Origin: Sneathiella chungangensis
GTDB taxonomy: Bacteria > Pseudomonadota > Alphaproteobacteria > Sneathiellales > Sneathiellaceae
NCBI RefSeq assembly: GCF_009882935.1
Contig: NZ_WTVA01000001.1
Coordinates: 248,001-312,000, forward strand
DNA: 64,000 nt
Direction of reading: 5' to 3'
Numbering within the stretch: the first letter of the stretch is position 1; every line of letters begins with the position of its first letter. The notes beneath the pieces are model-generated. The model had not been told where the DNA came from. It made no database searches and saw nothing but the letters and a program-made list of their open reading frames with translations. Both the position numbers and the translations under genes were made by a program. Positions 36,578 to 62,403 of this stretch are shown piece after piece.

Positions 36578-36606
36578 TTGACGGGTGGTGAGAACTTTTG
36601 TAGAAC
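36578..36606 (+). promoter_or_regulatory. lexA promoter
   Basis: TTGACG (36578-36583), 17-base spacer, TAGAAC (36601-36606). The -10 is inside the LexA box. The predicted start is about 35 bases upstream of the lexA ATG. Confidence 0.6.
36592..36606 (+). promoter_or_regulatory. LexA operator (SOS box) of lexA
   Basis: GAACTTTTGTAGAAC: perfect GAAC-N7-GAAC, the direct-repeat SOS box of alphaproteobacteria. It overlaps the -10 element, so LexA should repress its own gene. The same operator class occurs at 61631-61645. Confidence 0.85.
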
Positions 36607-36648: not shown

Positions 36649-37374
36649 ATGCTGACAAAAAAACAGCACCAGCTTCTTCTCTATATCCATGAGTGCCTGG
36701 AGACGCGTGGCGTCTCCCCTTCCTTTGATGAGATGAAGGAAGCGCTTGATTTAAAATCAAAGTCCGGAATTCATCGACTGATTACGGGGCTGACGGAACG
36801 GGGATTTATCCGCCGCCTGCCGCATCGTGCACGGGCGCTCGAGGTATTGAAGCTGCCGGATGATCTCAAACGGCGGATCGAGGCCGAAGAAACCACGGCG
36901 GATACCGAAAATCTGGTTGAGGTGAATTTCTCCCGCAAGGGAGCGCGTGACGACCTGCCGTCCAAAGAAGTGGTTGAGGCGGACGATGACAGCCTTCTCA
37001 GCCTGCCGCTCTATGGGCGCATCGCCGCCGGTACGGCGATCGAAGCCCTCAGCGATCCCAGCAGCTTCGTTGATATACCGGCCGGGATGGTCGGGCTGGG
37101 CCGGCATTACTGCCTCGAGGTTGCGGGTGATTCGATGATCGACGCCGGTATCCATGATGGCGATACCGTGATCATCCGCGAGAGTGAAACGGCCGAGAAC
37201 GGCCGGATCGTCGTCGCGCTGATCGATGATCACGAGGTGACACTGAAACGCCTGCGGCGCAAGGGCGGCTCCATCGCGCTGGAAGCGGCAAACCCCGATT
37301 TTGAAACGCGTATTTTCGGCCCGGACCGCGTCAAGGTGCAGGGTCATCTTGTTGCGCTTTTCCGGAAATATTAG
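36649..37374 (+). CDS. lexA: SOS repressor LexA
   Basis: 241 residues: winged-HTH DNA-binding domain (about 1-65, [20 protein letters not shown]), acidic linker, and S24 self-cleavage domain. Cleavage site A127-G128 ([11 protein letters not shown]), catalytic Ser162 ([15 protein letters not shown]) and Lys200 (VTLKRLRRK) are all present. RecA-stimulated cleavage induces SOS genes. The larger size (241 rather than about 202) and linker are usual for alphaproteobacteria. Own promoter with an overlapping LexA box. Ends 12 bases from the end of convergent comEC. Confidence 0.98.
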
Positions 37375-57869: not shown

Positions 57870-60800
57870 TCAAATATCATGCACATCGATGACCCCGGGC
57901 GCGGATTTGAGCGCCTGCCGCACTTCTGGCGTGATATTCACCTGATCCGACAGATCGAATTCTATTTCCTTCGCTTCATCCTCCAGGTTGAGGACAAACG
58001 CGACGCGCCCCCGGCCCCGGCCGCCCTGACGGAGGATCGCGGCGACGTCCGCAAGCGGCCTGTCGTCATTGGCGAAAATACGCACACCGTCCGCTATGTT
58101 CGCCGCGAGGGATTCGAGCCGTTGCAGGCTTTGCACCGTGAGCCGCGGCTGATCGCTGTCAAGATTGCCTGTGACGCGCAGTACCAACGATTGCCCCACC
58201 ACCAGAAGGTCGCGGTACTTATCGAGTGTTTCGGCGAACATCGTCACTTCAAAGGCGCCGGTGGCGTCCGAAAGCTGGACGAAGGCGAGTGGCTTGCCCT
58301 TTCGCGTCCGAAGCTCACGCTTTCCCATCACCGTCCCGGCGAGGGTCGCCGCACTTTCAGAGGCGCCAAGGCTGGCGAGATACCCCGCCGCATCGCGCAC
58401 ACCCGCTTTGTCGAGGGTCTTGTCCCAAGCATCCAGCGGATGGCCCGAAAGATAGAAGCCGATCGCATCGAACTCCTGCTTCAACTGCTCCATCGCCGTC
58501 CAGCGGGACGGCTGCGGAAGCGGTGGGCGGGCCGCCAATGTCTCGGCGCCGCCGCCAAAGAGATTGACCTGGCCGGATCCCCTCTCCTCCTCTGACTGCT
58601 GGGCCTGACGCAACAGAATTTCAATTGAGGCGAACACCTGTGCGCGATGATCGAGAAGATCGTCAAAGGCGCCGGCGCGGACAAGATTCTCCGCCTGGCG
58701 CTTGTTCATATATTTCGGATTGAGCCGCTCCGCGAAGTCGAACAGATCCCGATAGGGGCCGTTTTCCTCTCGCTCGCGCACTATTCCCGCCATGGCTTCG
58801 CGCCCGACGTTCTTGACCGCCGCAAGGGCATAGCGCACCGCCCCCTGTTCCCCGTCGAATTCCACCGTGAATTCTACTTCCGACTTGTTCAGGCAGGGCG
58901 GATAAACCGGGATCTTCATCCGCTCCAGATCCTGGCGGAAGATATTGAGCTTGTCCGTATTGTTCATATCGAGGCTCATGGAGGCCGCCATGAACTCGAC
59001 CGGGTAATTCGCCTTCAGCCAGGCCGTATGATAGGAGACGAGCGCATAGGCGGCGGCATGGGATTTGTTGAAGCCATAGTTGGCGAATTTCGCCACCAGA
59101 TCAAAGATATGCGTTGCGTCCTTCTGGGTAATCCCCTTCTCATGCGCGCCTTTGGCAAAAATCGCGCGCTGCTGGTCCATTTCGGACTGGATTTTCTTGC
59201 CCATCGCCCGGCGCAGGAGATCGGCATCGCCAAGGCTGTAGCCCGCGAGCGTCTTGGCGATCTCCATCACCTGCTCCTGATAGATGATGACGCCGTATGT
59301 CTCCTCGAGCACCGGTTTCAGTTCCGGATGGAGATAATCCGGCTCCTCCTCCCCATGCTTGCGGCGGATATAGGTCGGGATGTTTTCCATGGGCCCCGGC
59401 CGGTAGAGCGCGACGATGGCGATGATATCCTCGAAGGCGTCGGGGCGCATCTTTCTGAGCATGTCCCGCATGCCGGAACTTTCCAGCTGGAAGATGCCGA
59501 TGGTGTTGCCGGTGGAGAGAAGCTCGAACACCGCCGGATCATCGAGCGGCACCTTCGCATAATCGACCTCGATCCCGCGACGGGCCAGAAGCGCCTTCGC
59601 GCGATCCAGCACGGTCAGGGTCTTCAGGCCGAGAAAGTCGAACTTCACCAGACCCGCCGTCTCGGCATATTTCATGGAGAACTGCGTCACGGGCATGTCC
59701 GAGCGCGGATCGCGGTAGAGGGGGACCAGCTCGTCGAGCGGGCGGTCGCCAATCACGACGCCGGCCGCGTGGGTCGAGGCATGGCGGTACAATCCCTCGA
59801 GCTGCAGCGCGATCTCGAGAAGCTTCGCCACCTCCGGGTCCGTCGCTCGTTCCTCGCGCAAGCGCGGCTCCGTATCCAGTGCCTGCTGGAGGCTCACCGG
59901 ATTGGCCGGGTTGGCCGGGATCATCTTGCTGATCCGGTCCACCTGCCCATAGGGCATCTGCAGCACGCGCCCGACATCGCGCACCGCCGCCTTCGCCTGC
60001 AACTTACCGAAGGTGATGATCTGCGCGACCTGGTCGTGACCGTATTTTTCCTGCACATAGCGGATGACCTGCTCACGCTTGTCCTGGCAGAAGTCGATAT
60101 CGAAGTCCGGCATCGACACGCGCTCGGGGTTGAGGAAGCGTTCGAACAGCAGACCGAAACGAAGCGGATCGAGATCGGTGATGGTAAGCGCCCAGGCAAC
60201 CACCGACCCTGCCCCCGAGCCGCGACCGGGCCCGACCGGCACGTCATGCTCCTTCGACCATTGGATGAAATCGGAAACGATCAGGAAATAGCCGGGGAAT
60301 CCCATTTCATTGATCACCCCGATCTCATACTCGAGACGGTCGAAATATTCCTTCGATACAGTTTCCCGCTCCGCCTCCGTCATGCTCTCCGTAAAGACCT
60401 CATTTTCAAGACGGCGTTTGAGGCCTTTCGTTGCCATGGCCGCAAGCTCTCCGGCCTCATCACGCCCCTCCGCCGAGGAAAAGGCCGGCAGGATCGGGTC
60501 ACGCTTCGGCGAGGCCACGGCGCAGCGCATCGCAATCACCAATGTATTGTCGATGGCTTCGGGCAGGTCGGAGAAAAGCTCGATCATTTCCGACTGGGAT
60601 TTGAAATAATGCTCGGGCGTACGCTTGATGCGATCCTGATCGCCTACATATTTGCCGGCGGCAATACAGAGCAGCGCGTCATGCGCCTCATACATGCCCC
60701 GGTCCGCGAAGAAAACTTCGTTGGTGGCCACGAGCGGGATATCAAGATCATAGGCGATCTTTAAAAATCCGGGCTCGGTTTTCTTCTCGAGCGGAAGGCC

Positions 60801-61385
60801 GTGCCGCTGAAGCTCCATATAAAGGCGGCCATCAAAAACTTCTTTGAGCTTGCGGGCATACATTTCCGCCGCGTCAATCTGATCCGCGGCGATACGCCGG
60901 CCGAGCGGCCCTTCCGCCCCCCCGGTAAGACAGATCAGGCCCGTCGCATTTTCCGACAGCATCTCAAACGGAACCTGCGCGGTCTCTCCCGCCTCCGTCT
61001 TGAGGAAGGCATGGGACGTCAGTTTGAGAAGGTTGTTATAGCCGGCCTCGTCCTGCGCCAGCAACACAACGGGATCCGGTTCGGGCCGCCGTCCGCTCCT
61101 GTCGACGCCGTCCTCGCGCGTGATCGCAATCTGGCACCCGATGATCGGCTGCACGCCGCCGCCCATCATGGCCAGCGAAAATTCGAGGGCGCCGAACATG
61201 TTGTTGGTATCCGTGATGGCCACCGCCGGCATCTGGCAATTGCGGCAGAGTTTCAGGATATCCTTGACCGGCACCGCCCCCTCCGAGAGGGAATAGGCGG
61301 AATGGACACGCAAATGGACAAAACGGGGGCCCGCTTTCGCTACTGGCAACGGCACGTCTCCAATCTGTGATTTAAGCCGCCCCAC
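57870..61385 (-). CDS. dnaE: DNA polymerase III alpha subunit
   Basis: 1171 residues, DnaE1 type. PHP domain (about 20-290, FVHLRVHSAYSLSEG), polymerase palm with catalytic aspartates in MPDFDIDFCQDKRE (about 415), fingers, helix-hairpin-helix (about 870-920) and OB-fold (about 1000-1080) domains, and a C-terminal tail. Begins with GTG at 61385 after GAGGACATGCGATA; a GTG at codon 11 is an alternative. A perfect DnaA box lies 57 bases upstream and an SOS-type promoter 240 bases upstream on the same strand. It is the replicative enzyme, not the DnaE2 mutagenesis paralogue, given the intact PHP region and the neighbours. Confidence 0.97.
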   Translation of the reverse strand: MGRLKSQIGDVPLPVAKAGPRFVHLRVHSAYSLSEGAVPVKDILKLCRNCQMPAVAITDTNNMFGALEFSLAMMGGGVQPIIGCQIAITREDGVDRSGRRPEPDPVVLLAQDEAGYNNLLKLTSHAFLKTEAGETAQVPFEMLSENATGLICLTGGAEGPLGRRIAADQIDAAEMYARKLKEVFDGRLYMELQRHGLPLEKKTEPGFLKIAYDLDIPLVATNEVFFADRGMYEAHDALLCIAAGKYVGDQDRIKRTPEHYFKSQSEMIELFSDLPEAIDNTLVIAMRCAVASPKRDPILPAFSSAEGRDEAGELAAMATKGLKRRLENEVFTESMTEAERETVSKEYFDRLEYEIGVINEMGFPGYFLIVSDFIQWSKEHDVPVGPGRGSGAGSVVAWALTITDLDPLRFGLLFERFLNPERVSMPDFDIDFCQDKREQVIRYVQEKYGHDQVAQIITFGKLQAKAAVRDVGRVLQMPYGQVDRISKMIPANPANPVSLQQALDTEPRLREERATDPEVAKLLEIALQLEGLYRHASTHAAGVVIGDRPLDELVPLYRDPRSDMPVTQFSMKYAETAGLVKFDFLGLKTLTVLDRAKALLARRGIEVDYAKVPLDDPAVFELLSTGNTIGIFQLESSGMRDMLRKMRPDAFEDIIAIVALYRPGPMENIPTYIRRKHGEEEPDYLHPELKPVLEETYGVIIYQEQVMEIAKTLAGYSLGDADLLRRAMGKKIQSEMDQQRAIFAKGAHEKGITQKDATHIFDLVAKFANYGFNKSHAAAYALVSYHTAWLKANYPVEFMAASMSLDMNNTDKLNIFRQDLERMKIPVYPPCLNKSEVEFTVEFDGEQGAVRYALAAVKNVGREAMAGIVREREENGPYRDLFDFAERLNPKYMNKRQAENLVRAGAFDDLLDHRAQVFASIEILLRQAQQSEEERGSGQVNLFGGGAETLAARPPLPQPSRWTAMEQLKQEFDAIGFYLSGHPLDAWDKTLDKAGVRDAAGYLASLGASESAATLAGTVMGKRELRTRKGKPLAFVQLSDATGAFEVTMFAETLDKYRDLLVVGQSLVLRVTGNLDSDQPRLTVQSLQRLESLAANIADGVRIFANDDRPLADVAAILRQGGRGRGRVAFVLNLEDEAKEIEFDLSDQVNITPEVRQALKSAPGVIDVHDI

Positions 61386-61441
61386 TATCGCATGTCCTCG
61401 TCAAAAGGTAAGGCCTTGACAGCCTCTCCTATGAAGTTTTC

Positions 61442-61450
61442 TGTGGATAA
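61442..61450 (-). promoter_or_regulatory. Perfect DnaA box upstream of dnaE
   Basis: TTATCCACA on the minus strand ends 57 bases before the dnaE start. Same orientation and nearly the same distance as the box before ftsB (20366-20374). It lies in the 102-base gap between the small SOS-type ORF and dnaE. Confidence 0.45.
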
Positions 61451-61487
61451 CTCCCTTCAGTTAGCCGCCCCCGCCGTCCTGCGACTG

Positions 61488-61595
61488 TCAACCCGTCAGC
61501 CCCGCAACGATATCCGCCCAGAAGACCATCAGCCCCAGCGCACTCGCGAAGGCCGCACATTCAAATCCACTTTTTATTATCTGGTCGAGATCCAT
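61488..61595 (-). CDS. 35-residue hydrophobic peptide under a LexA-box promoter
   Basis: 36 codons including stop. Starts ATG at 61595 with a near-ideal ribosome site (AAGGAG, 7-base spacing). The peptide begins MDLDQIIKSGFECAAF and continues with a hydrophobic stretch (about residues 11-33, ALGLMVFWADIVAGL) with one Asp at 28, fitting a single inner-membrane helix with a short cytoplasmic N terminus. Upstream is a complete promoter with a LexA operator in its spacer. I do not recognise a homologue. Size, membrane nature and SOS control resemble Caulobacter SidA, a 29-residue SOS division inhibitor, but similarity of function is inference. No terminator is seen before dnaE on the same strand. 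Confidence 0.65.
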   Translation of the reverse strand: MDLDQIIKSGFECAAFASALGLMVFWADIVAGLTG

Positions 61596-61625
61596 GATGC
61601 TGCTCCTTTTTGTCTGTTGAAAGGC

Positions 61626-61654
61626 ATAATGTTCTTGTTTTGTTCTTTTGTCAA
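61626..61654 (-). promoter_or_regulatory. Sigma-70 promoter of the small SOS ORF
   Basis: TTGACA (61654-61649, perfect), 17-base spacer, CATTAT (61631-61626, 4 of 6). The predicted start lies about 25 bases before the ORF's ATG. The gap 61386-61722 (337 bases) contains this promoter, the 35-codon ORF and the DnaA box; between the promoter and lolD (61655-61722) I see nothing further. Confidence 0.75.
61631..61645 (-). promoter_or_regulatory. LexA operator inside the promoter spacer
   Basis: GTTCTTGTTTTGTTC on the plus strand (GAAC-N7-GAAC on the minus strand): perfect GTTC-N7-GTTC alphaproteobacterial SOS box, lying between the -35 and -10 hexamers. LexA binding here would block RNA polymerase. 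Confidence 0.85.
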
Positions 61655-61722
61655 TGAGTTATTTCAACGCCAGTTTTTCACATTAAATCAGGATATTAAT
61701 GGATAGAGCGGAAAACTGCCCG

Positions 61723-62403
61723 CTATGCCGTCACAAGATGATGATCGCGGACATGGAGGACGCGGTCCATGCGGCGGGCGAGTTCGATATTGTGCGTGGC
61801 GACCAGCGCGGCGACTTTACGGTCGCGGGTCGCATCGAGGAAATAATTAAACACCATTTCGGCGGTCTGCTCATCAAGGTTGCCGGTCGGTTCGTCGGCA
61901 AGCAAGACAAGCGGGTCATTGGCGAGCGCCCGGGCGATGGCAACGCGCTGCTGCTCCCCGCCCGAGAGTTTCGCCGGACGATGCGACAGCCGCTCCGCGA
62001 GCCCCATGCGCGTCAGGAGCTCCGTCGCATGCGCCCTCGCCGCCGACTTGGCGACGCCGGCGATCAGGTTCGGCATCATGACATTCTCAAGCGCCGAGAA
62101 TTCCGGCAGCAGATGATGAAACTGGTAAACGAAGCCGATCTTATCGCGGCGCACCTCGGTCCGTTTGTTATCGCGCGCCTTGCTGCAATCGATCCCGTCG
62201 ATAACAACGGTGCCGCTCGTCGGCGGCTCAAGAAGTCCGGCAATCTGCAGAAGCGTCGACTTGCCGGAGCCCGACGGGCCGAGCAACGCGACAATCTCGC
62301 CGGGGCGCAGCTCCAGCTCCACATTTTCGAGCACCAGCAGCTTTTCCTGCCCCTGCGCGAAGGTGCGACCGATATTTTCAAGCTTCAGGACCGGCTCACT
62401 CAT
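61723..62403 (-). CDS. lolD: Lipoprotein-releasing ABC transporter ATPase LolD
   Basis: 226-residue ABC ATPase. Walker [10 protein letters not shown], LolD-type Q-loop region [18 protein letters not shown], signature [15 protein letters not shown], Walker [13 protein letters not shown]. Powers release of lipoproteins from the inner membrane to LolA. Overlaps lolC by 8 bases. Confidence 0.96.

What the first reader, a model, noticed from the sequence alone, without database searches (positions are those of the whole stretch)
61488..61654. SOS-controlled 35-residue membrane peptide gene between lolD and dnaE
Seen: a perfect GTTC-N7-GTTC LexA box lies exactly within the 17-bp spacer of TTGACA/CATTAT, followed by AAGGAG-7-ATG and a 35-codon ORF ending TGA, whose product has one long hydrophobic stretch. 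Known: the Caulobacter SOS response makes SidA, a 29-residue membrane peptide that blocks division, and it is found by its LexA box, not by homology. Inference: this is an SOS-induced small membrane inhibitor or checkpoint peptide, too short for usual gene calling and possibly undescribed in this lineage.
Basis: partly seen in the sequence, partly recalled or inferred. Interest (0 to 1): 0.8.

Follow-up and report, generated by a model that had tools for sequence, protein, structure and literature searches.

The report
SOS peptide gene before dnaE, SidA-like
A 35-residue membrane peptide gene with a binding site for the DNA-damage repressor LexA lies just before the DNA polymerase gene dnaE, and it looks like a distant cousin of SidA, the tiny protein that stops Caulobacter cells dividing while their DNA is damaged.

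Summary
The ORF is a real gene: 21 of 24 genomes of the genus (Sneathiella) have it. All 21 keep dnaE downstream and a LexA box 3 nt after a TTGAC -35; codon changes are mostly synonymous (pN/pS 0.125 in the close clade). lolD was found upstream in only 7 of 21, so dnaE is the fixed neighbour.

By position, 30 of 166 alphaproteobacterial dnaE upstream regions (14 of 86 families) have a LexA box followed by a 28-49 aa hydrophobic ORF. In Caulobacter-like genomes this ORF is SidA: two tested score 72 bits with NCBIfam NF033228 (cutoff 35). A profile built without this family ranks 18 of 20 Sneathiella peptides above all 347 decoys. The reverse test and the direct comparison with SidA are not significant, and NF033228 does not hit the Sneathiella peptide.

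Best reading: a diverged, dnaE-linked relative of SidA that delays division when LexA is cleaved. Coding, promoter anatomy and linkage are well supported; kinship is probable; the action is inferred. Ten literature searches showed no such wider group. No terminator separates peptide and dnaE, so SOS read-through into dnaE stays open.

The parts
61649..61654 (-). -35 hexamer TTGACA
   Evidence: TTGAC present in 21 of 21 homologous loci
61631..61645 (-). LexA box GAACAAAACAAGAAC (direct repeat GAAC-N7-GAAC)
   Evidence: same 15-mer before an ImuA-like gene and a PA0069-family gene of the same genome
61626..61631 (-). -10 hexamer CATTAT; shares its first base with the LexA box
61603..61608 (-). 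Shine-Dalgarno AAGGAG, 7 nt before ATG
   Evidence: purine-rich stretches stand before the start in the homologues printed, judged by eye
61488..61595 (-). 35-codon ORF MDLDQIIKSGFECAAFASALGLMVFWADIVAGLTG plus TGA: SOS-controlled single-span membrane peptide, SidA-like
61442..61450 (-). DnaA-box consensus TTATCCACA between the peptide and dnaE
   Evidence: present in 21 of 21 homologous loci; that this is the DnaA consensus is recalled
57870..61385 (-). dnaE (DNA polymerase III alpha), the next gene downstream; no terminator-like site in between
   Evidence: dnaE N-terminus follows the peptide in 21 of 21 loci
61723..62403 (-). lolD, upstream neighbour in the window (seen in 7 of 21 homologous loci)
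   Evidence: (TIGR02211 E 1.3e-80, below its cutoff)
36649..37371 (+). lexA of the same genome
   Evidence: TIGR00498 above cutoff
36592..36606 (+). LexA box GAACTTTTGTAGAAC, 42 nt before lexA (autoregulation expected)

Best explanation
A real, translated SOS gene. LexA bound between -35 and -10 keeps it off; DNA damage and LexA cleavage release a strong promoter with a short leader (about 25 nt by the usual -10 to start distance). The 35-residue product inserts as one helix in the inner membrane. It descends from the same dnaE-linked ancestor as Caulobacter SidA and, by analogy, binds the late septal machinery (FtsW/FtsN) in the membrane and delays division until repair. Supported by computation: gene, promoter anatomy, conservation, LexA box, place before dnaE, same place as SidA. 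Probable but not proven: common descent. Inferred: damage induction, membrane insertion, divisome target, division delay.
For: Homologue in 21 of 24 genomes of the genus, each followed by dnaE (21 of 21). Box 3 nt after TTGAC in 21 of 21. pN/pS 0.125 in the 9-member close clade and 0.308 over all 21, against 1.32 or more in the shifted sense frames. lexA with its own box. Same arrangement within 600 nt before dnaE in 30 of 166 regions, 14 of 86 families. Outside this family and f63, 31 boxes in 26 of 161 regions against a mean of 1.45 boxes for 11 permuted half-sites; 26 of the 31 boxes are followed by such an ORF against 3.2% of all positions and 0 of 16 control sites. In f63, 47 of 50 regions have it (36 exact boxes, 11 with one mismatch). 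Two f63 peptides of genus g325 score 72 bits with NF033228 SidA; 12 of 16 g325 regions show a divergent ORF with the motif DTDTAGDD, one confirmed as inosine-uridine nucleoside hydrolase, which is what CCNA_02005, next in number to sidA CCNA_02004, is called in print. A profile of the other families' peptides puts 18 of 20 Sneathiella peptides above all 347 decoys.
Against: The window's own peptide scores only 5.3 in that test (2 decoys above), one other Sneathiella peptide 4.0 (11 above), and the sister-genus peptide 2.0 (41 above). In the reverse test (Sneathiella profile) none of the 22 other peptides, nor of the 6 SidA-type ones printed, beat the top two decoys. The direct Sneathiella-SidA profile comparison is not significant (E 0.031; 17% of column shuffles reach it), and Sneathiella against hand-picked bridging families is marginal (E 0.0043; 7%). 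Single-peptide shuffle tests against the Sneathiella profile gave p below 0.05 for 6 of 22. NF033228 does not hit it. 136 of 166 regions and 72 of 86 families show no such arrangement. One genome of the genus (G009, 65% complete) has dnaE with 1500 nt upstream, no exact box there and no peptide found in the genome. The span between E12 and D28 is only 15 residues. No expression or phenotype data.
Confidence: 0.7

Rival explanations
1. The LexA promoter mainly serves dnaE: SOS raises DNA polymerase III alpha by read-through, and the peptide is a leader cistron or a passenger.
For: Same strand, 102 nt from peptide stop to dnaE start, no terminator-like site between; dnaE is the constant neighbour while lolD is not (21 of 21 against 7 of 21); in most g325 loci the peptide stop is some 50-80 nt before the conserved dnaE codons.
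Against: The peptide is under strong protein-level selection, and in Caulobacter SidA itself inhibits division (PMC4211646, passages). A DnaA box lies between in 21 of 21 Sneathiella loci, suggesting separate control of dnaE. The linkage is partly by construction: outside the genus only dnaE upstream regions were read. Both roles may hold at once.
Confidence: 0.13
2. A TisB/DinQ-like SOS toxin that depolarises the membrane and causes dormancy rather than a specific division block.
For: Size, single hydrophobic span and LexA control fit. Six homologous loci (L014, L015, L017, L019, L020, L021) carry a second, opposed box (L021) or near-box (the other five) over or beside the -35, as expected for a product that must stay off.
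Against: A leader of about 25 nt with an open ribosome site leaves little room for the antisense control typical of those toxins (recalled); no Rfam match. An acidic residue at positions 12 and 28 and the invariant F25-W26 in A1 suggest a protein partner. Probable kinship with SidA points elsewhere.
Confidence: 0.12
3. A small subunit or regulator of another membrane complex (for example respiratory or Lol), unrelated to division.
For: Conserved aromatic and acidic residues could serve any membrane partner.
Against: No Pfam, NCBIfam, PHROG or credible PDB relative; the link is with dnaE and LexA, while lolD upstream is not constant (7 of 21 Sneathiella loci; 87 of 166 and 16 of 50 of the 0.9-kb regions).
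Confidence: 0.05

Closest known systems
SidA of Caulobacter (NCBIfam NF033228; CCNA_02004)
   Same: LexA box, one short hydrophobic span, encoded before dnaE; pooled-profile kinship
   Different: 35 instead of 29 residues; not hit by NF033228; C-terminal FW-x-[DE] motif in place of FVWM; one box in the promoter spacer instead of the cluster of box-like repeats seen in L318, L319 and L323
YneA / ChiZ / SosA (SOS-induced membrane division inhibitors of Gram-positives)
   Same: DNA-damage-induced small membrane proteins acting late in division (PMC13396833, passages)
   Different: YneA and ChiZ carry LysM domains and SosA an extended helix (same passages); no such domain here
TisB, DinQ (E. coli SOS membrane toxins)
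   Same: Size, one span, LexA control (recalled; DinQ also from a search listing)
   Different: Little room for antisense control in the leader; conserved aromatic and acidic residues; dnaE linkage
DidA of Caulobacter
   Same: Small single-span division inhibitor
   Different: 71 aa and SOS-independent (PMC4211646, passages)

Membership tests
SidA (NCBIfam NF033228, equivalog) | Score above the curated cutoff of 35 bits | tested here: not met
   No hit for any of 20 Sneathiella peptides at E up to 10, nor for the window peptide; two g325 peptides 72 bits, one g64 peptide 20.5 bits; 13 of 31 members of A2 hit it at all
SidA (wider, dnaE-linked group) | LexA box in the promoter | tested here: met
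   21 of 21 homologues
SidA (wider, dnaE-linked group) | Next gene before dnaE, same strand | tested here: met
   Window; dnaE follows in 21 of 21 loci
SidA (wider, dnaE-linked group) | About 30 residues with one hydrophobic span | tested here: met
   35 aa in all 20 A1 members except one of 37; hydropathy 1.85 over 17 residues; topology not measured
SidA (wider, dnaE-linked group) | Sequence descent | tested here: inconclusive
   18 of 20 Sneathiella peptides above all 347 decoys with a profile lacking this family, window peptide third; reverse test not significant; direct profile comparison not significant
SidA | Binds FtsW/FtsN and blocks division | not testable with these tools
SidA | Induced by DNA damage through RecA/LexA | not testable with these tools
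   only sequence evidence (lexA, box); recA was not searched
TisB/DinQ type I toxins | Antisense RNA controlling translation | tested here: inconclusive
   no Rfam match in 61380-61760, short leader; an unknown antisense RNA cannot be excluded
YneA | LysM domain | tested here: not met
   no Pfam domain in the window peptide

The most novel reading that the evidence does not exclude
SidA is not a Caulobacter invention. It is one branch of an ancient, fast-evolving SOS leader gene of dnaE kept in scattered families across the Alphaproteobacteria, and the LexA promoter drives a two-gene unit, peptide then dnaE, so that the same signal stops division and raises the replicative polymerase.
Probability: 0.3. 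Interest if true: 0.78.

Novelty: new member of a known kind. Interest (0 to 1): 0.62.

Why it matters
SOS-induced division inhibitors are described as unrelated from group to group (sulA, yneA, divS, chiZ, sidA: PMC4211646, passage) and are hard to find. Here one simple rule, a LexA box just before dnaE, uncovers candidate inhibitors in 14 of the 86 alphaproteobacterial families examined, ties them to SidA, and turns 'who stops division after DNA damage in these bacteria?' into a direct test. Variation across the group may show which residues of a 30-residue membrane inhibitor matter, and the linkage to dnaE raises the question whether the polymerase gene is part of the checkpoint.

Tried and rejected
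Antisense reading: the 104-aa plus-strand ORF over the same stretch breaks in relatives (for example L003). Of the antisense frames, one reaches pN/pS 0.29, read as the mirror of sense third positions; the other two are above 1. Phage origin: no match in 50,697 phage records; weak PHROG hits of unknown function, best E 0.046 in 2 of 20 members. Known families: Pfam YmiC 0.081 in one of 20 members and PDB hits on repetitive PPR proteins (best E 3.1e-6) plus one reductoisomerase, judged chance. Weak hits outside the genus were read as chance: 7 of the 14 such loci were checked for a box and none had one; the other 7 and the 2 were not checked.

Looked for published SidA letters and gene neighbours: the 2011 SidA paper is not held; a text search for four peptide fragments found no paper. 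An attempt to name one Caulobacter genome by a published box pattern was not decisive: 14 of 20 genomes had it, one twice. Two scripts failed on program options before the decoy test ran (result). A check of my draft showed that 'between lolD and dnaE' was not true across the genus (7 of 21 have lolD in the held flank), and the text was mended.

Choices that could bias: A1 holds 20 of 21 peptides (one duplicate dropped). The 22 peptides of other families, the 13 (A3) and 18 Caulobacteraceae-type peptides and the 9 bridging ones (A4) were picked by eye, with starts chosen at internal ATGs in several and two N-termini trimmed in A4. The second batch of 75 regions was chosen by hand for diverged dnaE and larger genomes. 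In one search one f63 genome (G086) is counted twice, and within f63 the permuted half-sites gave 8 sites of which 6 were followed by an ORF, so the f63 rate there is not a clean control. One search prints 48 of 50, but L317 is a chance one-mismatch hit elsewhere and was dropped by hand, giving 47. The Sneathiella-profile decoys may include overlooked true relatives (two score 18.1 and 15.5); not checked.

Full report
Place. The window is part of contig C12 (248001-312000) of a 3.81 Mb genome. Of 17 named loci with relatives of the peptide, 12 are Sneathiella records; the other five are labelled Sneathiellales, Alphaproteobacteria or Proteobacteria. So the host is a Sneathiella or close relative; its own name was not given. 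On the minus strand the order is lolC/E-type permease, lolD, peptide, dnaE.

Observation. The stated elements are present. The box at 61631-61645 shares its last base with the -10 hexamer. The bare GTTC-N7-GTTC pattern is barely enriched in this genome (91 against 72 for the reversed control), so a box alone proves little. The exact 15-mer occurs three times: here, before an ImuA-like gene and before a PA0069-family radical SAM gene. The genome has lexA (window 36649-37371, TIGR00498 above cutoff) with a box 42 nt before it.

A real gene. Homologues were found in 21 of 24 genomes of the genus, by single sequence and by profile. Of the three misses, the contigs of G006 and G012 end 34 and 157 nt before the conserved dnaE codons. 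G009 (65% complete) has 1500 nt upstream with no exact box and no peptide found in the held genome; in the 500 nt read it keeps a DnaA box, and further up lies a RecQ-type helicase gene that was not seen in any of the 21 peptide loci by motif, so loss went with a different neighbourhood. In 21 of 21 loci dnaE follows the peptide; lolD was found in the held flank (about 1.5 kb or less) of 7. In 21 of 21 the box begins 3 nt after TTGAC and the start lies 30-41 nt after the box. The product keeps 35 residues in 19 of 20 A1 members (one has 37), with invariant M1, K8, F11, E12, F16, F25, W26 and V30. pN/pS is 0.125 in a close clade of 9, 0.239 in a second set of 10 and 0.308 over all 21, against 1.32 or more in the shifted sense frames. 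Six loci (L014, L015, L017, L019, L020, L021) carry a second, opposed box or near-box by the -35, which fits tight repression.

Beyond the genus. The profile found no credible relative in 385 class genomes or in the sister genus G024, and Pfam, NCBIfam, PHROGs and PDB gave none. I therefore looked by position. A dnaE N-terminus was found in 377 of 387 class genomes and in 79 of 79 chosen handles; 166 upstream regions from 86 families were read. Thirty regions in 14 families, the window and G024 included, have an exact LexA box followed by a 28-49 aa hydrophobic ORF on the dnaE strand, within 600 nt of the conserved dnaE codons; 136 regions and 72 families do not. Outside this family and f63, boxes occur 31 times, in 26 of 161 regions, against a mean of 1.45 for 11 permuted half-sites; 26 of the 31 are followed by such an ORF against 3.2% of all positions and 0 of 16 control sites. 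The sister genus G024 has the arrangement with a diverged 36-residue peptide.

SidA. In one family (f63, Caulobacteraceae by inference) 47 of 50 regions have a box (36 exact, 11 with one mismatch) and a short hydrophobic ORF before dnaE, mostly readable as 29 residues, in some with a longer reading from an earlier start. Two of these, from genus g325 (L318, L319), score 72 bits with the curated SidA model (cutoff 35), full length; a third, from genus g64, scores 20.5, below cutoff. Divergent from the peptide, 12 of 16 g325 regions show an ORF with DTDTAGDD (read by eye); the one tested is an inosine-uridine nucleoside hydrolase (PF01156). CCNA_02005 is named so in print (PMC3667746, passage), sidA is CCNA_02004 (PMC11034885, passage) and replicative dnaE is CC1926 in the other strain's numbering (PMC1839093, passages). 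I recall sidA as CC1927 but did not see it in a text. [quoted passage not shown] The curated model passes its cutoff in 1 of 387 class genomes (an f63 member) and in one of 14 control genomes, Caulobacter vibrioides; three more genomes, one of them f63, score below cutoff at E 0.01 or less, and the other two were not looked into. Of 31 peptides of A2, 13 hit the model at E up to 10.

Is the Sneathiella peptide a SidA? By position, promoter, size and form, it corresponds. By sequence the link is indirect. Caulobacteraceae-type peptides match hand-picked bridging families strongly (E 4.4e-8, 0 of 150 column shuffles); Sneathiella against the bridge is marginal (E 0.0043, 7% of shuffles); Sneathiella against the Caulobacteraceae type is not significant (E 0.031, 17%). 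A pooled profile without Sneathiella or its sister genus ranks 18 of 20 Sneathiella peptides above all 347 decoy hydrophobic ORFs; the window's own is third (5.3 bits, top decoy 8.1), one other has 11 decoys above it, and the sister-genus peptide 41. With one family left out at a time, 17 of 21 peptides of the other families beat all decoys; three of f5 and the one of f116 do not. The reverse test with the Sneathiella profile is negative: the top two decoys (18.1, 15.5) outscore each of the 22 other peptides, the best of which, f116 and G024, come next (12.7, 12.0). In single-peptide shuffle tests 6 of 22 reach p below 0.05 against the Sneathiella profile and 10 of 22 against the Caulobacteraceae-type profile. 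I therefore do not file it under NF033228, whose cutoff it fails, but as a probable member of a wider dnaE-linked SOS peptide group that contains SidA.

How it probably works. LexA sits between -35 and -10; damage removes it; a short leader with a good ribosome site gives fast translation; the peptide enters the inner membrane. E12, an acidic residue at 28 and F25-W26 offer a face for a membrane partner, most likely the FtsW/FtsI/FtsN complex by analogy with SidA. All steps after the promoter anatomy are inference. A 2026 study reports low-confidence models in which several such inhibitors, SidA included, bind FtsW TM7, SidA on the opposite side (PMC13396833, passages).

The dnaE question. No terminator-like site lies between peptide and dnaE, and the gap is 102 nt here. 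TTATCCACA, the DnaA-box consensus (recalled), lies within 200 nt after the peptide stop in 21 of 21 Sneathiella loci; it occurs within 350 nt before dnaE in 13 of 164 other regions, against a mean of 0.13 for 60 shuffled 9-mers, and in 1 of 50 f63 regions. So dnaE may have its own control, SOS read-through, or both. Outside the genus I looked only before dnaE, so peptides of this kind elsewhere would have been missed.

Novelty. Ten literature searches in an open-licence library listed no paper on SidA relatives outside Caulobacter or on a dnaE-linked SOS peptide, judged from titles, abstracts and the passages cited. The 2011 SidA paper is not held; the 2008 Caulobacter regulon paper was not looked up.

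Noticed in passing
window 61442-61450 and the matching place in 21 Sneathiella loci: A perfect DnaA box TTATCCACA lies between the peptide and dnaE in 21 of 21 loci, and within 350 nt before dnaE in 13 of 164 other alphaproteobacterial regions (0.13 expected; 1 of 50 in f63); dnaE may be under DnaA control.
   Followed up: partly
L050 (G000:C15:49150-49164): A LexA-like box GTTCTATTTTTGTTC lies about 280 nt before mraZ, usually the first gene of the division and cell-wall cluster (recalled).
   Followed up: no
L033, L046 (G000:C11:219657, G000:C13:398521): The identical 15-base LexA box as at the peptide precedes a PA0069-family radical SAM gene and an ImuA-like gene; the radical SAM gene is a likely SOS member of unclear function.
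   Followed up: partly
L027 (G000:C10:79372-79386): A LexA-like box precedes a small glyoxalase-superfamily gene.
   Followed up: no
L044 (G000:C12:743500-743514): A LexA-like box lies before a C-5 cytosine DNA methylase gene.
   Followed up: no
f63 loci L318, L319, L323: The Caulobacter-like sidA promoter holds a cluster of box-like GAAC repeats rather than one box.
   Followed up: no
L108 (G009): A MAG of the genus whose dnaE has a RecQ-type helicase gene further upstream, a DnaA box, and no peptide or exact LexA box: loss in a different neighbourhood.
   Followed up: partly
L001-L021: The gene upstream of the peptide differs within the genus: lolD in 7 of 21 held flanks, something else or out of reach in the rest.
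   Followed up: no
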